From the NCBI GenBank assembly GCA_963682025.1, contig OY821518.1, forward strand, positions 123,714,800 to 123,778,799: 64,000 nucleotides of DNA. The letters run 5' to 3'. Of this stretch, positions 16,690 through 60,753 are shown piece after piece. A program made the translations under genes and the position numbers. Numbering within the stretch: the stretch's first letter is position 1; every line of letters starts with the position of its first letter. The DNA comes from Cordilura impudica (Eukaryota; Arthropoda; Insecta; Diptera; Scathophagidae). The notes beneath the pieces are model-generated. The model worked only from the letters and a program-made list of their open reading frames with translations. It did no database searches and was not told the origin of the DNA.

Positions 16690-17642
16690 TAACTCGTTTG
16701 GAAACGCTAGCTAGCAATTGAACGTGTCATTCCATTCCTTGTATGTGGGATGGAATTTTTGGATCATTAAAAGGTCGATCATCTTGATTTAAACATTCTT
16801 TTAATGTATCGTACGGAAAGCTTCGCATAAATGGTGGAACAAATACGTTATTTATATCATTCAAATTGATCATTTCCGTGTAAAATGTGCAATCGAAGTT
16901 TATATCTGGTTTTCTATAAACTCTAAGTTCCGTTGGGCCGCCAGGATCGGTTCGATAGCGTAGAATTTTCTTTATAGCACAGTCGCGCTTTTCTTTGCCA
17001 TCACCAAACAACATTGATGACAAGATATTTTCCGAATGCACATAATATGAATTATCTGTAATTACTTGATTGACAATTCAGCGTAAACGAGGATCTAGAA
17101 ATCGTGACCACCTAATGAACTTGAAAAATAAAGCACTACCGTACACGACAGAGCTGTAATAATTGATATTGAAGTACATTCGCACGTAACATTTAATTAT
17201 AAATTCAACCAGAATTCTTAAGTTCTCATCCAGATTTGCCGTTGTCACATATAATCGTAATAATGTAGCGGGCTTTACAATTTTCCCTGGTTTGATGTTA
17301 GCCAGATCCACCAAAACCACGCCGCTAGATATTGCATTGGCCATGCCGTATAAGTACTTCGAATCGGTGGAAAATTCAATTTTCTGAAAGCCGTCCACCA
17401 CCTGAAAATATATAATAATAAATAATTAAAAACGGTTGACAATTATAATAAATTAGTGATAGCAATAACTTACCGGAAGAGTTTCAGAAGTTTCGATTTG
17501 ACGGCTCAGTATTCCGGTTGCCGATCTTGGCCCAGTGCTGGTTGCTTTATCCAAAGCTTCAAACAAATGCCGAAACGGAAGTTCGTTGAAGTGTAGAAGG
17601 CAAACGAACCAATACAATGGTCTTTTTAATATCAATTCGAAT
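16690..17642 (-). pseudogene. Unnamed multi-exon gene, 3' half, interrupted by Transib-1a
   Basis: Going down from 17642 the frame gives LKRPLYWFVCLLHFNELPF and DKATSTGPRSATG, then a spliceable intron (17473-17402), then FSTDSKYLYGMANAISSGVV, LLRLYVTTANLDENL and a stop near 17078. A further segment (17041-16727) gives SENILSSMLFGDGKEKRDCA. I know this pattern from uncharacterised multi-copy arthropod proteins, but no function is established. A stop before SENIL and the loss of the usual C-terminal Cys-His-x-Gln-Ala text show decay. The upstream half lies beyond Transib-1a at 20489-21325. It could be a degenerate host gene or part of an unnamed mobile element. Confidence 0.6.
17402..17473 (-). 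other. Predicted 72-bp intron of the broken gene
   Basis: On the minus strand the 5' site is CCG|GTAAGTT and the 3' site is ATTTTCAG|G after a TA-rich tract. Splicing joins two open frames in phase. The size is typical of short fly introns. Confidence 0.7.
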
Positions 17643-17647
17643 CGTCA
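17643..17647 (+). repeat. Left target-site duplication of Transib-1a
   Basis: CGTCA at the left matches CGTCG at 20484-20488 with one change. Transib elements duplicate 5 bp with consensus CGNCG. Confidence 0.75.
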
Positions 17648-17682
17648 CACAGTGGACCATATTTTGAGAAGGCGGCCAAAAA
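17648..17682 (+). repeat. Left terminal inverted repeat of Transib-1a, RSS-like
   Basis: Heptamer CACAGTG, then a 21-bp spacer, then CCAAAAATA. The heptamer is identical to the recombination signal sequence heptamer of V(D)J recombination; the A-rich block shares 6 of 9 positions with the nonamer ACAAAAACC. Confidence 0.85.
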
Positions 17683-18189
17683 TAATTTTTTTTTGTTACC
17701 GATTTTAAAGTTATGTTATTCATTTGAAAGAAAATACTAGTAAACCTCGGGAGCCAAAAATTGCGACTCTATCTCAACTATATCGTAGCGAACAGGATCT
17801 TCGAAAATGGGCTTTCTCAGTATTTTGCTAAAATTAAAAGTTTCTTTGTAAATTTTTATTTCTGAATGACTGTAACTTTTTTGATTTAAAGATTTTGAAG
17901 TGAAATAAATTTTGTATAATTTTGTGGCTTCCATACTATTAACGTTAAAAATATAAAATCACTGAGTCATTCCGAAATTTAAAAAAAAAATTTTTTTAAA
18001 AAGTCAAAATTTTCCAAAAATCTCCTACTTAATAGAGCATAACTCCTGCCAGTCAAAAGCAGTCAGAAAAAATCTTGCACTCGTCTATAGTCCTAACCCT
18101 CTCCTATACTCCTATGCCCCATTATACACCCACCAGTTTCCGCCCGTGTGCACCAGAACAATTTTTCTGACCCAAGGTTAGATATTTTC

Positions 18190-18430
18190 TGCAAAATTTA
18201 TGAATACAAAAGTTGTCCACTATGTGGTTAGGATATATTAAGTTTGAGGTGATGTTTGTAACTGCCAAAAATATTGGACCTTTATCCCTCTTTTATTATA
18301 CGGATCGACTCAAAAACACTTTCTGAGTCGATTAAACGATGTCCGTCCGTCCGTCTGAGTGTTATGAATACAAAAGTTGATCGTACCGGTGCACCGCGGT
18401 GTATTTTTTTGCGTGTCGGTAGAGTTGTCA
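18190..18430 (+). mobile_element. Short DINE-like relic inside Transib-1a
   Basis: The text CCACTATGTGGTTAGGATAT, ACTGCCAAAAATATTGGACC and ATGTCCGTCCGTCCGTCTGA parallels the first 150 bp of the DINE copies. The same relic is at about 32140-32370 in Transib-1b, so it was present before the two copies split or it is part of the element. Confidence 0.6.
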
Positions 18431-18587
18431 GGAGTTGTTATATACTTATAAAAAAGGGTTGAGATATAATGTGCTTAATTGTTACAGGTAAATTTACACA
18501 GGTGTCTTTCAAAAACATTAATAGTCTGAATTAGAGTTATATAGTTTAAATACCTGACAAAATGGGAAACAATTTAAATAACAGGTA

Positions 18588-18808
18588 AATGGTAAAAAAA
18601 AAACTATTGCGACATAGCCCTTTAAGATATGAGCAGGTATGCTTCACCTTTTAAAAGGGGTTAGGGTGGGTTTTTTTTGCTTTTAAAAGTGGTAATAAAA
18701 GATAAAAATTTGTGAATGGTAAAAAAAAAACTATTGCGACATAAGATATTAGCAGGTATGCTTCACCTTTTAAAATGGGTTAGGGTGTGGGTTTTTTTAT
18801 GCTTTTAA
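18588..18808 (+). repeat. Tandem duplication of about 130 bp in Transib-1a
   Basis: AAAAAAACTATTGCGACATA, GCAGGTATGCTTCACCTTTT and TTAGGGTG occur twice in direct order (from 18592 and from about 18720). Copy 1b has a single unit at 32517-32610. Confidence 0.75.
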
Positions 18809-18846
18809 TAATGTTTCCACAATAATTATTCATTACAAGTTCTGCA

Positions 18847-19607
18847 ATGGCTAAGTACTGTTACAGAGATCTGGCAGATATTTATTTTCAACGAAATGAT
18901 GTAGACGATGTAATTTTGCACATAGTGAGCAACGACTTCTTTAAGAATTGTAACCTAGAAGACATTGAAATACACAAAGGAAAAATTACTAATTTTGCAT
19001 CGAATTTGAAAAGACGGGACATTGAATGCTCTCATAGCAAGGCAAAGATGTACAAACGTTACCAAGACTGGTTAATAAAGGAACTTATTTCTGAGAGTGC
19101 ATCTACAACTGCCAACAAAAGTGGAAAAAAGGGTCGACCAGCAAAACCAATTGACGGATGTAGTGAAAGATCGCGAAGGCGCAAGCAGGAGAATATCAAT
19201 GAAGACATTTCTCAAAGAATTATTAATGATTCATTTTTGCACCAAATTCAACCAACCCAAAATTAAAAAACAAAATTGAAATAATTGAAAAAATAGTAGA
19301 AGCGAGCCCAAGGCGCACAAAGCGGATTTTAAAAAGCATTCCTACACCAATTGAAGATAAGAAATTTACGCCGGAAGAAGCGTTCGCCCTATTTTTGGAT
19401 TTGAAATTGACCAAAAATCAATATAAAGAATTGCGGAAGCGAACCAATGAAAAGAATTGTGGGATTTTTCCAGAGTATCGAGATTTAGATTCTGCCAAAA
19501 AAGAAAGTTTAAAAACAAATTCAATAAAAATATGTACAGCTAGGCCTCGTAATCGCCCAACCAAAACAAGGGGAAAGAACATGAATCAGGTGTATATCAT
19601 GAATTAA
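18847..19607 (+). pseudogene. Transib-1a transposase, N-terminal region, frameshifted
   Basis: The ATG at 18847 opens 139 codons (MAKYCYRDLADIYF) with a basic stretch GKKGRPAKPIDGCSERSRRR. A slip in an A run near 19264 puts the continuation into another frame, with SPRRTKRIL, TPEEAFALFLDLKLTKNQY, ELRKRT and GIFPEYRDL. The same sequence of blocks (Gly-Arg-Pro, basic SERxxRR, LTKxQY, IxPxYxx) recurs in Transib-2 and in the family's pre-core region. Near 19510 an internal deletion jumps to text that in copy 1b lies about 740 bp further on, removing the catalytic Asp and zinc regions. Confidence 0.75.
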
Positions 19608-20055
19608 TAAGACGATTCACAATCATATTACAAGTTCTAGCATGCAGCAGAAAGATAAATGCAAAAAAATTTGGAGAGTACGCCAATAAATAGCTATACT
19701 TTATAATGAAAAATACTCTTGGAGATATATGCCATCCACAGTTCATAAAATTTTGTACCATGGGGAACAAATAATTCAAAACAATATGCTACCAATAGGA
19801 GATCTATCTGAAGAAGCGCAAGAAAAAAGGAACAAATACTACAGATTCTTTCGCGAGCACAACACAATGAAAATGTTCAGATGTTGTACTAATGAAGACC
19901 TTATCACTATTTTGTTGTGCACTTCAGATCCATATATGTCCAACATTCGTCAAAAATGGAAAACTACCTCTATTGAATTAGACGAAGAAGCAAAACAACT
20001 TCTAGAAGATGAAAATCAAGGCTATTTAGAAGAAATTTTTACTAAAATTGGTTGA
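19600..20055 (+). pseudogene. Transib-1a transposase, C-terminal catalytic-Glu domain
   Basis: From 19729 the frame gives MPSTVHKILYHGEQIIQ, LPIGDLSEEAQEKRNKYYRF, FREHNTMKMFR and TSDPYMS, ending at a TGA at about 20053. HKxLxHG, LPIGxLSEEAxExRNK and TSDP are hallmarks of the Transib C-terminus; the Glu before RNK corresponds, as I align it by eye, to the last catalytic acid of the RAG1 core (E962). Upstream of 19729 the frame is broken. Copy 1b lacks this domain entirely. Confidence 0.78.
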
Positions 20056-20448
20056 TTTAAATTCATTACACTAACAATAAGTTACACTTTTTTTTATATA
20101 GTTAAAAAATTTTCTTGATCTAAAAATTTAAATATTTTGTAAATTTACAATAAAAATTGTTATATTTCATTTTCTGAAAAAATTAACTTAAAAAATTGTT
20201 AAAAAGTATTAGTTGTAAAATTAACTGAAAAAATAAGACATTATATTAAAAAAAAAACCTTTTTTTACCTTTTAACACTTCACTTTTGTACTAAAATTCA
20301 ACTATAAATGAAAATGTATTTTAAACCCTCCGTAACTTTTTTTATTTCCGAGAATTACGTTTTATAGCAAAACTTAAAGGCTAGAGTCTCACCAACCAAA
20401 CAAAAAAAAACCGCATATCAAAATTCCAATCCAATCAAGGGTTATAGA

Positions 20449-20483
20449 TTTTTGACCGCCTTCTCGTCAAATGGTCCACTGTG
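20449..20483 (-). repeat. Right terminal inverted repeat of Transib-1a, RSS-like
   Basis: On the minus strand it begins CACAGTGGACCATTTGACGA. Heptamer CACAGTG, 21-bp spacer, then TCAAAAATC, which matches 7 of 9 positions of the RSS nonamer ACAAAAACC. The right duplication CGTCG follows at 20484-20488. Confidence 0.85.
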
Positions 20484-20488
20484 CGTCG

Positions 20489-21325
20489 TATAATTCCACC
20501 ATGTGGGCCAGTGTTTGCTGGCTCACCGTCAGTGTATATGTCAATTAATGCATCCCGTGATATATTTCTATCGTTGAAAAAATCATTTAATTTTGTTGTT
20601 TTGTATTCAGCGGTTTCATGTTCCAGTCTTACGTAACCAATCAATTCATAATTCGGTTCTCTCAAAATAAGAAGATGAGGTTCTTTTACCATCATAGTAT
20701 GATACTTCTCTCAATTTTATCTCTCTTTAAAGCATCATCTTTTCTGCCATCAAATGAAAACGCTAAAAAATTGGTATCATCTAACAGTTTGCGAAGCACT
20801 TCTTATCTGCATTTCTCTTTTTCTCTGCGAACTTTCGATTTATCCACGATGGGAAGTTTGCCATGCTTATGTTTCATTTTAAAATCTTGGAAAAGAGCGG
20901 TTCCCAATGCTGATGCTACTCTATCAGGCACACCAAATCTGTCACATATCAAGGCAAAGTAAAAACAATCGTATCTTTCTGTGTATTGTGAACTTTTGTT
21001 TCTATCCATATCTTCTTGAACCGATGGCGGTGCGTATTTTGAATCATTTGGCTCTTGGTATGTTGGCATTGATGATACAGACGTTGCTCCTTGCTCTTCA
21101 ATTTCCATCACAAATGCATCCACTGTTAGTCTTCTTTGATTGTGTTGATCGTGCATAAACTCTTTGAGGCGTTCTGGAACCAAGCCGCACGTACATGGAG
21201 CTGCCTTCAGATCGCATTTACATGTTCCAATGTAAAAAATTGTTTCCAGAGATTTTACTAACTCTGCAAAATTTGGGTTTTTCTTTTTGCTCTTGATTTG
21301 GGCTTGATATTTGTCAAGCAATCTA
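20489..21325 (-). pseudogene. Unnamed multi-exon gene, 5' half, interrupted by Transib-1a
   Basis: The frame from 21321 to 20803 (MLDKYQAQIKSKKKNP; Cys-rich GTCKCDLKAAPCTCGL; RYDCFYFALICDRFGVPDR; VDKSKVRREKEKCR) is followed in a second frame by DDTNFLAFSFDGRKDDA, VKEPHLLILREPNYELIGYV and DIYTDGEPANTGPHGGIIRR. The order and motifs match the same uncharacterised arthropod family as 16690-17642. The Transib entered just after GGIIRR. The start is cut by a dispersed repeat at about 21326, so the N-terminus is unknown. One frameshift lies near 20800. Confidence 0.6.
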
Positions 21326-31582: not shown

Positions 31583-31617
31583 CACAGTGGACCATATTTT
31601 GAGAAGGCGGCAAAAAT
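31583..31617 (+). repeat. Left terminal inverted repeat of Transib-1b
   Basis: CACAGTG heptamer followed by the same GACCATATTTTGAGAAGGCG spacer as copy 1a and a CAAAAATC block. Confidence 0.85.
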
Positions 31618-32728
31618 CATTTTTTTTTTGTTACCGATTTTAAAGTTATGTTATTCATTTAAAAGCAAATACTAGTAAACCTCGGGAGCCAAAAAATTGC
31701 GACTCTATCTCAACCACATCATAGCGAACAGGGTCTCCGAAAATGGGCTTTCTCAGTATTTTGCTAGAATGAAAAATTTCTTTGTAAATTTTTATTTTTG
31801 AATGACTGTAACTTTTTCGATTTAAAAGATTTTGAAGTAAAATAAACTTTGTGTAATTTTGCGGCTTCCCTACTATTAATTTTAAAAATGTAAAATCACT
31901 GAGTCATTCCGAAATTAAAAGAAAAAACAATTTTAAAAAAGATCCAAATTTTCCGAAAATCTCCTACTTAATAGAGCATACCTCCTGCCAGTCAAAAGCA
32001 GTCAGAAAAAGTCTTGCACTCTTCTATAGTCCGAACCCTCCCCTATACTTCTATACCCCACTCTACACCCGCCAGTTTCCGCCCGTGTGCACCAGAACAA
32101 TTTTTCTGACCCAAGGTTAGATATTTTCTGCAAAATTTATGAATACAAAAGTTGTCCACTATGTGGTTAGGAGATATTAAGTTTGAGGTGATGTTTGTAA
32201 CTGCCAAAAATATTGGACCTTTATCCATCTTTTATTATATGGATCGACTCAAAAAAACTTTCTGAGTCGCTTAAACGATGTCCGTCCGTCCGTCTGAGTG
32301 TTATGCATACAAAAATTGGTCGTACCGGTGCACCGCGGTGTATTTTTTTTGCGTGTCGGTAGATTTGTCATATAAAAAAGGGTTGAGATATAATGCGCTT
32401 AATTGTTACAGGTACATTTACATAGGTATCTTCCAAAAACATTAATAGTCTGAATTAGAGTTATATAGTTTAAATATTTGACAAAATGGGAAACAATTTA
32501 AATAACAGGCAAATGGTAAAAAAAAAACTATTGCGACATAGCTCTTTAAGATATGAGCAGGTATGCTTCACCTTTTAAAAGGGGTTAGGGTGTGGGTTTT
32601 TATGCTTCTAAAAGTGGTAATAAAAGATAAAAATTTTTATTTTACATAATTGCAAGAAAATATTTATTATAATGTTTATAATATTTATAATAATGTTTCT
32701 ACAATTATTATTCATTACAATTTGTACA

Positions 32729-33540
32729 ATGGCTAAGTATTGTTACAGAGATCTGGCAGATATTTATTTTCAATGAAATGATGTAGACGATGTAATTTTG
32801 CACATAGTGATCAACGACTTCTTTAAGAATTGTAACCTAGAAGACATTGAAATACACAAAGGAAAAATTACTAATTTTGCATCGAATTTGAAAAGACGGT
32901 ACATTGAATGCTCTCATAGCAAGGCAAAGATGTACAAACGTTACCAAGACTGGTTAATAAAGGAACTTATTTTTGAGAGTGCATCTACAACTGCCAACAA
33001 AAGTGGAAAAAAGGGTCGACCAGCAAAACCAATTGACGGATGTAGTGAAAGATCTCGAAGGCGCAAGCTGGAGAATATCAATGAAGAAATTTCTCAAAGA
33101 ATTATTAAGGATTCATTTTTGCACCAAATGCAACCAACCCAAAATAAAAATAAAATTTAAATAATTGAAAAAATAGTGGAAGCGAGCCCAAGGCGCACAA
33201 AGAGGATTTTGAAAAGCATTCCTACACCAATTGAAGATAAGAAATTTACGCCGGAAGAAGCGTTCGCCCTATTTTGGATTGGAAATTGACCAAAAATCAA
33301 TACAAGGAATTGCGGAAGCGAACCAATGAAAAGAATTGTGGGATTTTTCCAGAGTATCGAGATTTAGTTTCTGCCAAAAAAGAATGCTTACCTTCACAAT
33401 CTGCTATTAGTGTCACTTCATCATCAGCAGAAATAAAATTGCAAGATCTCCTTGGACATACTGCAGAACGATTGCTAAATACGCTTGATACTGCTCATTT
33501 AAAAAAAAAATTGGTAATGGCAGCATTACTTTAATTTCTA
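32729..33540 (+). pseudogene. Transib-1b transposase, N-terminal region
   Basis: Very close to copy 1a: MAKYCYRDLADIYFQ, then TGA in place of the CGA Arg codon of copy 1a. Later come GKKGRPAKPIDGCSERSRRR, an A-run frameshift near 33145, a one-base loss near 33272, LTKNQYKELRKRTNEKNCGI and FPEYRDLVSAKKECLP. Unlike copy 1a it continues into SSSAEIKLQDLLGHTAERLL, which leads to the catalytic core. The stop at 33533 follows a poly(A) expansion. Confidence 0.75.
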
Positions 33541-34370
33541 ATGGGGATCCTCTGGTCAGAAACAATACAAGCAATCTAATGCCGAAAATTCATCAGATAC
33601 TAATTTATTTATGGTATCTTTCGTTCCATTGCGCTTAACAAAAAGGTGTAGCGTCTTAGAGCCGTCAACTATTAGAGCAACAGAAATTTATATATGGAAA
33701 AATTAAATTCCTTCTTCAACAAAGTATTGCAGACCAATAAAATTTGCATTCAAAAAGGAAACCAAAGATGTCATAACTGAAGAAGTTCAAAAAATAAAAG
33801 ATCCAATTAAGGAACTTCAACCAGTAATATTTAAATCTGATGACCAAGACATTGAAGTACTTTTTAAAATGTGTCTCACAATGATTGATGGAAAAGTTGC
33901 ACAAGCTTTAACTGGAACAAAGTCAACGTCAAGCTGCATTATATGCCAAAAGACATCAAGTCAATTAAGCCAACCACCACCAGAAGACGATAGTTTTAAG
34001 GAAGCCTACGAATTTGGAATGTCCCCTCTTCATGCTAGAATACGTTTCATGGAGCATATTCTTAAATTGGGTTATGATTTGGAATTTGGTCCGTTAGGCG
34101 AAACAGTGTGAAAAAACAAAGAAAATGAAGATAAAAGAAAGCAAAAAAAAAAACAAATTCAACAAAAATATCTACAGCTAGGCCTCGTAATCGACCAACC
34201 AAAACAAGGGGAAGGAAACACAAATGATGGAAATACTGTAAGGAGATTTTTTTCCGATCCGGAAACTGCAGCATCAATCACAGGTGTAGATCATGAATTA
34301 ATAAGACGATTCAAAATCATATTACAAGTTCTAGCAGGCAGCAGAAAGATAATTGCAAAAAAATTTTAAG
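33541..34370 (+). pseudogene. Transib-1b transposase, central catalytic and zinc region
   Basis: GSSGQKQYKQSNAENSSDTN at about 33550 matches the text just after the first catalytic Asp (family motif DGxxGxxxYKQ). The preceding codons are disturbed by a small deletion. From 33869 the frame gives MIDGKVAQALTGTKSTSSCI, with the second Asp in IDGK, CIICQKTSSQ as a zinc-binding pair, and FGMSPLHARIRFMEHILKLG. A TGA at about 34109 and an A-run slip follow, then text on GRGNTNDGNTVRRFFSDPE-like sequence. The last catalytic Glu domain is absent. Confidence 0.72.
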
Positions 34371-34778
34371 TACTTTTTCATTACACTAACAATAAGTTAC
34401 ACTTTTTTTTATATAGTTAAAAAATTTTCTTGATTTAGAAATTTAAATATTTTGTAAATTTACAATAAAAATTGTTATATTTCATAAATTTACCATAAAA
34501 ATTGATATAGAAATATTTAAAAAGACAATAAAAAAAATTTAACTAAAGCAAAAACATACGAGTTTTTCATTGAAACTTCTCTATCTTGAACCAATATAGG
34601 GTAACTTTTACGTTCGCTGCTTAATAAATTATATTTTAACTTGGAATCTTTCAAAAAAAAAAAAAAAAACAACCTTTGGCCCTTGTGCACATTAGGACTA
34701 AAAAGTTTACGGGGGGCCAAAGTTTGGCATTTTCTGAAAAAATTAACTTAAAAAATTGTTAAAAAGTATTAGTTGTAA

Positions 34779-35137
34779 TATAGCAGACAAGATAGTTTTA
34801 GAGTTTAATAGTATTTATTTTATTTATGCTTCAGCTCTATCTAGGAGCTGAGTCTTTTAATGCTAAATTATTAATGATTAATTGATTATAAAATGTTCCT
34901 CTTTATATACATATTTTCAACCTATATTAACAACAATGTGTTACCTGCACTTGGGTCAGCATAAACATAAGTGTGCCAGCGTAACAACAACATACAATAA
35001 CAATATACGCAGTCATACAATGTTTTGCAAATGCAGTGGTCAACAATATTGGTATTTGTTATTTCCGCATTTGCAAATATTGTACGCTATGCAGTGTGGG
35101 TATTATACAGCACACTACGAAAGTCTGTTACGCTACA
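34779..35137 (-). repeat. 3' LTR of the gypsy element
   Basis: On the element strand it starts TGTAGCGTAAC and ends GTCTGCTATA; the ends TGTAGC/GCTATA form a short imperfect inverted repeat. It carries CTTTCGTAGTGTG-type U3 text. It matches 41166-41525 throughout except for one base near 35125. Confidence 0.92.
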
Positions 35138-44059: not shown

Positions 44060-44094
44060 CACTATGGCCAAAATTGCGATTTTAGCGGCAAAAA
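44060..44094 (+). repeat. Left terminal inverted repeat of Transib-2
   Basis: Begins with heptamer CACTATG, followed by GCCAAAATTGCGATTTTAGC and GGCAAAAA. Confidence 0.9.
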
Positions 44095-44352
44095 ATACTT
44101 CCCGACAAGCTAGCTTCACCAAATTTTTTGTGTAGACTTCTAATGATAAAAAAAATCGATTTGAGAAAAATGGGGGGCCACGCCCCCTTTTTCCAAAGTA
44201 ATGGCTAATAGTACTTCCTGGCAAGCTAGCTTCACCAAAATGGTTATACGGACTTCTACTGACAAAAAAAATCATGTGAGTCCGATCACAGGGAAGATGT
44301 GTAAACATCTAGTAATTAAAGATTTTTTTGTCATTTTTTAAAACCAAACAGG

Positions 44353-44472
44353 AAGCGTCATCTATGTATCACTTATAGCAAAAACTGTTTCAGCTAATTC
44401 AACAACCCTTTGCTGTAAAACGTTAAAAATATCCCAATATAAACGTATATATGTGATACATAGATGACGCTT
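44353..44472. repeat. 120-bp fold-back with perfect 20-bp inverted arms
   Basis: AAGCGTCATCTATGTATCAC at 44353-44372 is the exact reverse complement of GTGATACATAGATGACGCTT at 44453-44472. It may be a tiny MITE inside Transib-2; no clear duplication was seen. Confidence 0.85.
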
Positions 44473-44933
44473 TTAAAAAAGTGGCATAAAAAACCATGTT
44501 ATATCATAATTTTTTCACCAATACAATCATAAGTCACACAGCGTTTTTGTGATTGTATTGTGAAATAGAAATTTACCCCCCTGCGCGTATAGATGTTTAC
44601 ACATCAAAAAGCAACTTGAGAAAAAAAGAGCGGTCCGCGCCCCCTTTTCCTATACCCAAAACTCAAATTGTCGGCAAGAATACTTACCAAAAAGCTGGCT
44701 TCATCAAATTTTGTATACGGACTTCTACTGACAAAAAAAACTTGAGAAAAAATGGGCGATCCACGCCCGCTATTAAAAAAATATTGAATGCTACCAAGAA
44801 ATTTATTTATTTTTTAATTCATAAATTTATAATTTTAAAGAAGTTGTAAATGCTTATGGATTTTTCTAAAAATAACAAAATAATAGATACATATTCTCAA
44901 AAGATATACGGCTTAATTAATCATGGTCGTTTT

Positions 44934-47005
44934 TTAGTTTTCATCCGTTTCTAATTCCAATGAATAATTATTTAACGACTCCATGCTAACATCACAATCA
45001 GAACTATTATTGCAGCCGGAGGTTTCTTGAGATGTTGGAGCTAATAGCAGTTCTGGTGGTAATTCAGGCATTTTAAAAAGATCAATGACTTCTCGAGGAA
45101 ACGGAAGTTTTTTGAACAATTTGTATGTTCTTGCAAACATAAACTTGAAATATATGGGTCACAGCTATCCATAGCTTTATGATACATGCCAAGTATGTTG
45201 TGCACTCTTGAATGCTTTCGAGCGTGACCAGTTCCATCTTTTTTATAATATTTGTTTCGCGCCGCAGATGCATTTTCTGCAAGGCAACCTACGGGTACTA
45301 CTGAAGCCATAATTATGATTGACGAATATTTCGTGTATTGTGGCGGACATCGAGTACCATTCGAAGTTTTGGAAAAATATTTCACTGTTTAATGCAATGG
45401 GCACAAACCTTTGAGCATCAATTTCAAATTCAGAGGAGAGAGCAATTAAGATTATGTGTAAATGTTTCAAAAAATCAATATTTATACCAGTAATAGATGC
45501 TGAAAGGTCCGTGCGAGAAAATGCTCTTCTAGCTGTGTTGTCATCATTGGTGTTGCCGCTGCCATTTGCTTCCGGCTTATCGACATGAAGGCCCATTTGA
45601 AGCAAAAAATCTTTTTGAATTTTTTATTTCTTTTCTGCCAGGATTCTCTTCTCTTCTGTTCCACGAACTTGCCATTTTCTCATATCTAGCTTGTATGAAA
45701 GTTTTAAAACAAACTCGAAACTACGAAACCACGCATGCAAAGGGCTTATTCCATATTTCAATGCGTCCGCCTTTGCTTCAAAATTGCTTTGGACCGGCAT
45801 GACAGATGGGGCATTTCTGTGCACTTTTAGTTCCTGTCAACACATTTAAGACTTTCCCATCTATTAATGTCATATATAAATTATATTTTACTTTAGCTTT
45901 TTTCCCATTACTTAGTGTGTATTGTAGTCGTTCCAACTTCTTAATCCGTGTGTTGTGGTTTTCAGTTGAAATGTGCTCTTTTGTTTCTTTAACAAACTCC
46001 ACTTTTAAAGGCCTACAAAAGCATACTGACTGAGATGTACGGTTTACTCAAATATTATCACCTGCTGATGAAATTATTTTTATTGGAATGACTGATGTCA
46101 CAAAAAGGGACTGATCGAAACTTTCCGAAATATTTTCCACAAATTTTTGTTTAAACAAGCTGTGACCGGTAGAACCATCAAGCCCGTAGCTCAAAATTAG
46201 GATCGATTCTTCAACATCCATTATACACAATACTTCAACTTGATATGCAAGAATTCTTTTAGCTGTTCTACCAAATTTTGCAACGATACTTCGACAGAGC
46301 TTTCATTCACTTTGATTTCATCCGGTCTACATTTCAATTTGCTTTTATAAACTTTATCATAAGTCGGATAAATACTACTATTGTGTTTTATGTTTAATTG
46401 ACGCATATTTGAGTACTGCTTTTTAGTTAATCTGTTTTCTAATAAAAACATTAGAGCTTCATCTGGTGATACTGCCGTAACTTCTTTTTGGCTAGTATTA
46501 AGAACTTCTCGAATTTTGGATGGCCAATTTGGAGATATAGCAACTTGTTGAAGGACAAATTTCAAATCCATTGCGTGGGATTTTTTGGCAGATATAGAGG
46601 CAGCATGAACTAATAATTGCGCATTGTCTCCTTGCTGGGAAGCTAATCTCCTTTTATTTCTTTCGCAGCTATCATCATAAGTCATTTTTGGTCGCCCGAT
46701 AGCATTAATCGTTTTCGGTATAACAAAAATTGTTTCTCGAACCAACCATTCCTTATTATATTTTCTAAATGCTTTCTCATTCTGGATTGTTTATCCCATT
46801 TTAGTTTAATAAAATTAAGTAACTTCCGAGCTTTAGTACATATTAATTTACTTAATTCACTGCCAATTTCGTATGGAATCTTTCCTTTTATGTAACTCAA
46901 AACATTCCTGTTGTTTCTCAACCAAAACTCAAATATTTCAGAATTTTTGAACCTGAGTGTTTCTACAAAAATATTAAAAATTCGTTTATTAGCAGTCAAA
47001 TGCAT
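44934..47005 (-). pseudogene. Transib-2 transposase, full domain order but broken
   Basis: The N-terminal part starts at 47005 (MHLTANKRIFNIFVE). 46745-46221 has GRPKMTYDDSCERNKRRL, SPDEALMFLLENRLTKKQYS and SSIYPTYDKVYKSKL. 46230-46048 has GLDGSTGHSLFKQ with the first catalytic Asp. 46002-45778 has MTLIDGKVLNVLTGTKSAQK with the second Asp and CPICHAG. Then come YGISPLHAWFRSFEFVLKL (45824-45624), GNTNDDNTARRAF (45605-45243) and VVPVGCLAENASAARNKYYK with CDPYISSL (45385-45041). This is the order of Transib/RAG1-core proteins. The residue aligned with the last catalytic Glu (before ARNK) is Ala. At least five frameshifts are present. Confidence 0.82.
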
Positions 47006-47470
47006 ACAATTTTACCATGACATAAAACTTGAGATTTCTATAAACAATCACATGTAAATAGTTCCAATGACACTTCATGACGTTTTTCGTTTTACTCCAC
47101 GAAAAAATATAAAACTCTTCAAAATTTCACAAAAAAATTCAGACAAAAATCCACCAACATAAGTACGAAATACAAACATTTAGCAAACTATATTTGTATA
47201 TAGTAAAAACACTCACCTCGAGTATTACAACTCATATTTACAAAGTTTTTTTTTTCAAAAATATGTTATTAAAAAAACAGTTTTTAATTTTATAAAAATT
47301 TTGCTGCTTCACTTGTATTAACACGTACAAAAAAATATGTAAATATTAACAGCTGTTTGTACATAAACTGGGTTGTCAACAGTAAAATTTTTTTTAGTTT
47401 TTTCTTATCAATATGATGGGTATTGAACACCATCAAAAAAATTGTAAAAATTTAAAGTTGAAAAATTGAC

Positions 47471-47505
47471 TTTTTGCCGCTAAAATCGCAATTTCGGCCA
47501 TAGTG
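47471..47505 (-). repeat. Right terminal inverted repeat of Transib-2
   Basis: On the minus strand it starts CACTATGGCCGAAATTGCGA; one mismatch to the left repeat. The target duplication AATTG follows. Confidence 0.9.
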
Positions 47506-59622: not shown

Positions 59623-60753
59623 ATGGTTGTGTATACGCTTGAACAACGCTGGGAAATATTGCGACATTACCATGAGGCCCTATGCTCCTAAAAGGAACAA
59701 CGGGACTATATATATATATATACCATGAAAATCATGGTAATGTTGCAGAATGTGTGCGAAAATTGCGTACGGATTTTGGAAGAAGAGAAGCACCGTCAGC
59801 TCCGTATGTTCGTTATCTTGTGAAAACAGTGAAAGAAACTGGCAACCTCATCGATAAACCAAAGCGAGAAAAGCCAAAAACAGTGCGTACACCCGAGAAT
59901 ATTGCTGCTGTGGCAGAAAGTGTGCGTGAAGCGCCATCAACATCAATTCACCGTCGTTCTCAAGAATTAAACATTTCGGAGGCATCATTGAGACGAATTT
60001 TGCATAAAGACCTTGGTATGATGCCATACAAAGTCGAATTGGTACAGGAGTTGAAGCCAACTGACCATCCAATGCGTTTTCGCTTCGCTAAGTGGGCCTA
60101 CGATCGACTTACAGAAGATGCCGATTTTGCCAAAAAAAATCATCTTTTCAGATGAAGCTCATTTTTGGCGGGTATGTAAACAAGCAAAATTGTCGCATTT
60201 GGGGCACAGAAAACCCGCATGCATACATTGAAAAGCCGATACACCCAAAACGAGTCACTGTTTGGTGCGGATTTTAGTCCAGAGGCATAATTGGGCCATT
60301 TTTCTTCGAAAATGAGCAAGGAGTGGCCGTTACAGTCAGTGGCGATCGTTATCGGGCCATGTTGAACGAATTTTTGTTCACAAAAATTAAAGAGGAGGAT
60401 ATTGGCAACATTTGGTTTCAACAGGACGGCGCTACGTGCCACACAGCCGAAGCTACACTCGATGTTTTGCGATCTGTTTTTGAAGATCGTATTATCAGCC
60501 GCAGAGCTGATGTCGTTTGGCCACCTCGGAGCTGCGATTTGACACCGTTGGACTATTATTTGTGAGGTGCCCTCAAAGATAAGTGTTACGCCAACAAGCC
60601 AGAGACAATTGACGCTTTAAGGGACAATATTCGTGAAGCCATTGGTGAAATACAGGTGCACGCAATCGATAATGTGCTTAAAAATTGGACCGATCGTGTA
60701 GGCTACGGCATGGCCAGCCGAGGCAGCCATTTGAATGAAATTATTTTCCATTA
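59623..60753 (+). pseudogene. DD41D mariner transposase, broken
   Basis: Starts MVVYTLEQRWEILRHYHE at 59623. A 45-bp insertion shifts the frame; then HENHGNVAECVRKLRTDFGR, RRSQELNISEASLRRILHKD (helix-turn-helix) and YKVELVQELKPTDH follow. Catalytic residues are visible as Asp in FSDEAHF, Asp in FQQDGATCH and Asp in TPLDYYL, 41 residues after the second. Lesions: one extra A in a run near 60135, loss of a codon or two after EAHF, TGG to TAG after WCGF at about 60276, TGG to TGA after DYYL at 60563. It ends GSHLNEIIFH at 60753. Confidence 0.88.
59668..59728 (+). repeat. 45-bp insertion flanked by 8-bp duplication in the mariner ORF
   Basis: TACCATGA occurs at 59668-59675 and 59721-59728. The 45 bases between begin GGCCCTATGCTCC and end in (TA)n. 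The related coding text reads through without it. Confidence 0.75.

What the first reader, a model, noticed from the sequence alone, without database searches (positions are those of the whole stretch)
17648..20483. Transib ends carry the exact V(D)J recombination signal heptamer and an RSS-like nonamer
Seen: both ends of the element start CACAGTG; 21 bp later come CCAAAAATA (left) and TCAAAAATC (right), sharing 6 and 7 of 9 positions with ACAAAAACC. Known: RAG1 and Transib transposases share a catalytic core, and Transib ends resemble recombination signals. Inference: this fly family is an unusually close natural match to an RSS.
Basis: partly seen in the sequence, partly recalled or inferred. 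Interest (0 to 1): 0.85.

Follow-up and report, generated by a model that had tools for sequence, protein, structure and literature searches.

The report
Fly Transib transposon with RSS-like ends
This is a defective copy of an abundant fly Transib transposon whose ends carry the antibody-gene heptamer and a partly matching nonamer but not the 12- or 23-base spacing, a resemblance already known for this transposon group.

Summary
Window 17648-20483 is flanked by 36-bp inverted ends: CACAGTG, 21 bp, then CCAAAAATA (left, 6/9 to ACAAAAACC) or TCAAAAATC (right, 7/9). It is a Transib: a C-terminal piece matches HzTransib (E 8.2e-19). This copy lacks the stretch with two of the three catalytic acids, so it is non-autonomous. 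Among sampled ends, 26 of 28 left and 40 of 44 right keep CACAGTG; 24 of 28 and 40 of 44 keep CAAAAAT; the adjacent 5-mer is CGNCG in 45 of 72. 'Unusually close to an RSS' is not supported: the spacer is 21/21, conservation is uniform along the end, and reviews already report Transibs with identical heptamers and nonamers and symmetric 20-22 bp spacers. Of five Transib families examined in this genome, another is closer: CACAGTG, 23 bp, GCAAAAATC at the 5' end of two fetched copies with open 699-aa frames; a pattern leaving four heptamer positions free hits 1,873 places. Left-right comparison in families 1 and 3 fits bipartite recognition by the catalytic core and an N-terminal GRP (NBD-like) domain; family 2 does not show it. 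New member of a known kind.

The parts
17643..17647 (+). left target-site duplication, CGTCA
   Evidence: 4/5 match to the right one; of 15 non-duplicate complete copies 8 have 5/5, 5 have 4/5 (this one among them), 1 has 3/5, 1 has 0/5
17648..17654 (+). left terminal heptamer CACAGTG
17655..17675 (+). 21-bp spacer of the left end
17676..17684 (+). left A-rich nonamer-like block CCAAAAATA (6/9)
   Evidence: CAAAAAT at positions 30-36 in 24 of 28 left ends
18559..18797 (+). internal repeat, about 120-127 bp per unit, expanded in some other copies
   Evidence: direct repeats D1 and D2; many overlapping matches to query 938-1161 in other copies
18847..19266 (+). N-terminal transposase piece (139 aa) with GRP motif, NBD-like
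   Evidence: 150 scored places in the genome at 92-100% identity, of 11,970 first-look candidates
19395..19607 (+). second transposase piece, frame disrupted (residues 178-256 of the family-3 frame match at 19278-19508)
19511..19587 (+). approximate internal-deletion region; residues 257-542 (family-3 numbering), with catalytic D308 and D415, have no match in this copy
   Evidence: blastn and tblastn against longer copies
19729..20055 (+). C-terminal transposase piece (108 aa), keeps the third catalytic acid (E622 in family-3 numbering)
   Evidence: 6PQN HzTransib E=8.2e-19; RAG1 chains E=0.17 and weaker; PF12940 E=0.03, below cut-off
20447..20455 (-). right A-rich nonamer-like block TCAAAAATC (7/9)
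20456..20476 (-). 21-bp spacer of the right end
20477..20483 (-). right terminal heptamer CACAGTG
20484..20488 (+). right target-site duplication, CGTCG
31583..34781 (+). second copy of the same family, right end not found (3' limit is the last match); starts CACAGTG after CGACG; a 1-bp spacer deletion puts CAAAAATCA at 29-37
44060..47505 (-). a different Transib family (family 2): ends CACTATG, 21 bp, GCAAAAA; flanks CATTG/AATTG; transposase remnants on the minus strand

Best explanation
Window 17648-20483 is an internally deleted, non-autonomous copy of an abundant Transib DNA transposon family. It would be moved only by a transposase supplied in trans by other copies. Shown here: homology to HzTransib/RAG1, 36-bp imperfect TIRs, a 5-bp duplication with motif CGNCG in the family, loss of the stretch with two of three catalytic acids, and about 1,800 right ends in the genome. 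Inferred: the transposase cuts next to CAC of the heptamer by the nick-hairpin DDE reaction reported for HzTransib and RAG, while the N-terminal GRP domain grips the A-rich block about three helical turns inside. The RSS resemblance comes from shared ancestry of RAG1 and Transib plus this common bipartite recognition, and is not a special property of this family.
For: C-terminal piece to 6PQN HzTransib, E=8.2e-19. In 8 longer family-1 copies, D308 is kept in 7, D415 in 6, E622 in 7. The family-3 frame matches 6PQN over residues 209-686, E=3.9e-88; D308, D415, E622 and G130-R131-P132 are invariant in 15 of 15 aligned homologues. The Transib profile aligns GRP with RAG1 'GGRPR', collinear with two stronger stretches. 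Ends and flanks; CGNCG flanks 18/28 left, 27/44 right. Genome-wide right-end pattern: 942+876 places, reversed-pattern control 0. Left versus right ends: family 1 identical at 1-13, 15, 19-28 and 30-36; family 3 (L061 5' end against the L059 3' end) identical at 1-11, 15, 17-19 and 28-40. GRP in Transibs: PMC9435367 (passages). Hairpin mechanism of HzTransib: PMC6941560 (passage).
Against: Little against Transib identity. The role of the A-block is inferred: no binding data; the GRP-to-NBD stretch scores only 4.4 bits, not significant alone. Family 2's two ends agree almost throughout (34 of the first 35 positions), so they show no diverged middle, and family 1's inner block (19-36) is wider than a nonamer. 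The HzTransib chain in the structures begins after the NBD region, and a 489-aa HzTransib is reported (PMC1852546, passage), so a Transib can work without that domain. Pfam gives the window pieces no hit above cut-off.
Confidence: 0.92

Rival explanations
1. This family's ends are an unusually RSS-like natural substrate that vertebrate RAG1/2 would use.
For: Exact heptamer at both ends and 6-7 of 9 nonamer, conserved in sampled copies. In 12-RSS assays CACAGTG was marginally preferred overall (PMC9723617, abstract).
Against: Spacer 21/21, neither 12 nor 23. A closer family exists in the same genome. Identical heptamers and nonamers are already stated for Transibs (PMC6941560, passage). In 12-RSS assays many other heptamers worked, and CACAGTG ranked only 933rd when followed by GG (PMC9723617, passages); here it is followed by GA, so that figure is only a hint.
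Confidence: 0.05
2. The A-rich block is chance in AT-rich DNA, and only the terminal heptamer region is functional.
For: In random sequence of this composition the best match over spacers 11-24 is >=6/9 in 29% of trials. Copies are young, so everything is conserved. HzTransib TIRs are said to have little or no nonamer similarity (PMC8289069, passage). Family 2 shows no diverged middle.
Against: Left and right ends of families 1 and 3 stay identical over this block while part of the middle differs. An A-run starts at position 31-33 in four of the five families examined; in family 4 it is interrupted, CAATAAAT.
Confidence: 0.12

Closest known systems
Transib superfamily, HzTransib (PDB 6PQN and relatives)
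   Same: DDE transposase related by sequence, heptamer-like TIR (PMC8289069, passage), 5-bp TSD (PMC1852546, passage)
   Different: The HzTransib chain starts after the GRP/NBD region and its TIRs are described as lacking nonamer similarity (PMC8289069, passage); here there is a GRP domain and an A-block
Drosophila melanogaster hopper / transib2
   Same: Transib, 5-bp TSD, palindromic target motif
   Different: Target motif CCANTGG (PMC3276498, passages); families 1 and 3 lie in CGNCG or near it, family 5 has CANTG at 6 of 14 places
V(D)J recombination signal sequence (RSS)
   Same: CACAGTG; A-rich block 6-7 of 9
   Different: Spacer 21 instead of 12/23, symmetric pair, no gene segments
Transib families with near-12/23 asymmetric TIRs (Transib5_DM, Transib2/N1-3_AG; PMC8355894 passages)
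   Same: Heptamer plus nonamer-like block
   Different: Those are asymmetric; this family is symmetric 21/21

Membership tests
Transib superfamily | transposase homologous to RAG1 core / HzTransib | tested here: met
   window C-terminal piece E=8.2e-19 to 6PQN; longer family-1 copies align to the family-3 frame
Transib superfamily | DDE catalytic triad encoded by the family (a property of autonomous members) | tested here: met
   of 8 longer family-1 copies, D308 in 7, D415 in 6, E622 in 7, all three in 4. The window copy itself keeps only E622 and lacks the other two, so it is a defective member
Transib superfamily | TIRs starting CAC | tested here: met
   28 of 28 left and 41 of 44 right ends; both ends of the window copy
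Transib superfamily | 5-bp target-site duplication | tested here: met
   of 15 non-duplicate complete copies: 8 with 5/5, 5 with 4/5 (window copy among them), 1 with 3/5, 1 with 0/5
V(D)J recombination signal | heptamer CACAGTG | tested here: met
V(D)J recombination signal | nonamer ACAAAAACC | tested here: inconclusive
   6/9 and 7/9
V(D)J recombination signal | 12- or 23-bp spacer, paired 12/23 | tested here: not met
   21/21; family 3 has 23 at the 5' end (L060, L061) and 22 (L060, L061) or 23 (L059) at the 3' end
V(D)J recombination signal | cleaved by RAG1/2 | not testable with these tools
   needs a cleavage assay

The most novel reading that the evidence does not exclude
The related family 3 in this genome (CACAGTG, exactly 23 bp, GCAAAAATC at its 5' end; 699-aa frames with the DDE residues and a GRP domain) is a natural 23-RSS-like end that vertebrate RAG1/2 could pair with a 12RSS, and its GRP domain reads the A-block as the RAG1 NBD does. 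It would give a present-day insect model for how heptamer-23-nonamer recognition worked without RAG2.
Probability: 0.2. Interest if true: 0.6.

Novelty: new member of a known kind. Interest (0 to 1): 0.27.

Why it matters
Transib ends are the accepted relatives of antibody-gene recombination signals. This family adds a large set of ends with exact heptamers, and family 3 adds a version with a 23-bp spacer at the 5' end (22-23 at the 3' end) and open transposase frames. Together they would allow a direct test of whether the A-block and its spacing matter to a RAG1-like enzyme that has no RAG2. The finding itself does not change the accepted picture.

Tried and rejected
Information-content test as proposed: ran it. 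It does not discriminate, because positions 1-36 carry about 1.5-2.0 bits throughout in young copies; left-right and between-family comparison was used instead. One search located ends with a fuzzy match that shifted the boundaries and spoiled the duplication comparison; it was replaced. Literature for a table of Transib ends: Kapitonov & Jurka 2005, Hencken 2012 and Liu 2019 not held; searches gave listings, from which I read passages of ten papers but saw no table of end sequences. Solved structures for the N-terminal piece: nothing relevant. Pfam on whole transposases: no relevant hit. L063: no convincing end found. Families 4 and 5 (L062, L064) rest on one 3' end each. The ends sample is partial and biased to young copies: fetched were 8 places, 30 of the 40 scored places (of 637 candidates) and 20 of the 40 (of 1,773), and ends whose 21-bp middle differs by more than 4 bases are missed. 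L039 and L040 share flank and end and were counted once, though both are.

Full report
What is there. Window 17648-20483 is bounded by an imperfect inverted repeat. Left: CACAGTG, 21 bp, CCAAAAATA. Right: CACAGTG, 21 bp, TCAAAAATC. The flanking 5-mers are CGTCA and CGTCG. Minus-strand frames of unknown function lie on both sides and look like one gene interrupted by the element (inference). The element carries transposase pieces at 18847-19266, 19395-19607 and 19729-20055. The last matches the HzTransib chain 6PQN at E 8.2e-19 and RAG1 chains weakly (0.17 and worse). Pfam RAG1 (PF12940) scores below its cut-off (E 0.03).

The copy is defective. Against L041 it lacks about 740 bp at one place, and further stretches. 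By tblastn with a family-3 frame, residues 257-542 have no match in it, and that stretch holds two of the three catalytic acids. Family-1 copies with more of the gene keep the triad in part or whole: of 8, D308 in 7, D415 in 6, E622 in 7. Of the 15 complete copies, 13 were checked (this one included); the longest stop-free stretch in any of them is 345 codons. In the genome search with the N-terminal piece, 150 places were scored of 11,970 first-look candidates, at 92-100% identity; one of them lies in a 658-aa open frame. I did not fetch that place.

Conservation among copies. Ends were located by TIR positions 8-28 only, with up to 4 substitutions, so heptamer and nonamer took no part in finding them. 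Of 28 left ends 26 have CACAGTG, 1 CACCGTG, 1 CACAGGG. Of 44 right ends 40 have CACAGTG; the others are TACAGTG, TTCCGTC, CACATTG and AAAAGTG. CAAAAAT stands at positions 30-36 in 24 of 28 and 40 of 44. The adjacent 5-mer is CGNCG in 18 of 28 and 27 of 44. Outside that 5-mer information content is below 0.5 bits; at positions 1-36 it is about 1.5-2.0 bits throughout, spacer included. The sample is partial and biased to young copies. Of 15 non-duplicate complete copies, 8 have a perfect 5-bp duplication, 5 have 4/5, one 3/5 and one 0/5. Genome-wide, a 35-letter right-end pattern with four heptamer positions free occurs 942+876 times, the reversed control 0 (places without letters).

Is it unusually RSS-like? 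The heptamer is exact, the nonamer 6-7 of 9, the spacer 21. At spacer 23 the match is only 5 (left) and 4 (right), at spacer 12 it is 3 and 3. A second, diverged family in the window (44060-47505) has CACTATG, 21 bp, GCAAAAA at both ends. A third family, met through PF12940 and fetched as L059-L061, has CACAGTG, 23 bp, GCAAAAATC at its 5' end (L060, L061) and 22 bp (L060, L061) or 23 bp (L059) at its 3' end. L061 has CGTCG on both sides; L060 has CGACG and TGACG. A 35-letter pattern of its 5' end (heptamer positions 3-6 free, 23 bp, GCAAA) occurs 936+937 times, control 0; of the 23 places returned with letters, 20 have CACAGTG. L060 and L061 each have an open 699-aa frame, counted from a TTG. 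With L059's 545-aa frame as query, 80 of 41,075 first-look candidates were scored, all at 94% identity or more. Single 3' ends of two more families read CACGGTG (L062) and CACTATG (L064), with weaker blocks (5 and 6 of 9). So two of the five families examined have the exact heptamer, and the reported family is not the closest to an RSS. There may be more families; I did not count them.

What is known. PMC6941560 (passages) states that some Transib ends have heptamers and nonamers identical to the RSS consensus with spacers of various lengths. PMC8355894 (passages) lists symmetric 20-22 bp Transib spacers and a few near-12/23 families. PMC8289069 (passages) says most Transib families have symmetric TIRs, with HzTransib showing little or no nonamer similarity. 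PMC9435367 (passages) reports a GRP-bearing NBD equivalent in Transibs. PMC9723617 (abstract and passages) reports that CACAGTG is marginally preferred by RAG1/2 but that a wide range of heptamers works, and that CACAGTG is only 933rd when followed by GG. An exact heptamer is therefore weak evidence of RAG usability. The founding paper (Kapitonov & Jurka 2005) was not held; what I know of it is recalled.

Mechanism. The family-3 frame aligns to HzTransib over residues 209-686 (E 3.9e-88). D308, D415, E622 and GRP130-132 are invariant in 15 of 15 aligned proteins (that the three acids are the catalytic ones follows from the alignments to 6PQN and RAG1 and from recalled RAG1 knowledge). The profile's N-terminal GRP stretch aligns with RAG1's GGRPR stretch, weakly (4.4 bits, not significant alone) but collinear with two stronger stretches of 21-22 bits in that chain, while the 6PQN chain begins only after that region. 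The best-supported model: the core cuts at CAC of the heptamer, and the N-terminal domain holds the A-block about 30 bp inside. For it: left and right ends agree in two outer blocks with differences between (family 3: 1-11 and 28-40, with 15 and 17-19 also equal; family 1: 1-13, 15, 19-28, 30-36), and an A-run begins at position 31-33 in four of the five families. Against it: family 2's ends agree at 34 of their first 35 positions, so they show no diverged middle, and HzTransib seems to do without the N-terminal domain. Binding and cleavage were not tested.

Target motif. Families 1 and 3 lie in CGNCG or near it. Of 14 exact 3' ends of family 5, 6 are preceded by CANTG, which resembles CCANTGG of Drosophila hopper and transib2 (PMC3276498, passages). 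Whether heptamer type and target motif go together across families is open. The family-4 flanks seen are CAGCG (L062) and CACTG (the one of 9 places shown with letters), which fit neither motif cleanly.

Verdict. Observation confirmed; identity as Transib supported; the special closeness to an RSS not supported. New member of a known kind.

Noticed in passing
L060:1106-4412, L061:1143-4335, L059:1069: A different, very abundant Transib family with CACAGTG-23-GCAAAAATC at the 5' end (L060, L061) and open 699-aa frames; a 5'-end pattern with four heptamer positions free hits 1,873 places.
   Followed up: partly
window 44060-47505: A CACTATG-ended Transib remnant that seems inserted into a Copia-like retroelement (flanks CATTG/AATTG), a nested insertion.
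   Followed up: partly
window 16727-17635 and 20435-21321 (minus): Frames of unknown family on both sides of the Transib that look like one protein interrupted by the insertion.
   Followed up: no
window 18559-18797; G000 C2:248501258-248502246: An internal repeat of about 120-127 bp in family 1, present in many overlapping units in some copies: a minisatellite growing inside a transposon.
   Followed up: no
families 1, 3 versus 2, 5: CACAGTG-ended families lie in or near CGNCG; the CACTATG-ended ones have CATTG/AATTG (family 2, one copy) and CANTG at 6 of 14 places (family 5): heptamer type and target motif may go together.
   Followed up: partly
window 59682-60155: Open frame that looks like a mariner/IS630-type transposase N-terminal part (recalled resemblance, not tested).
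   Followed up: no
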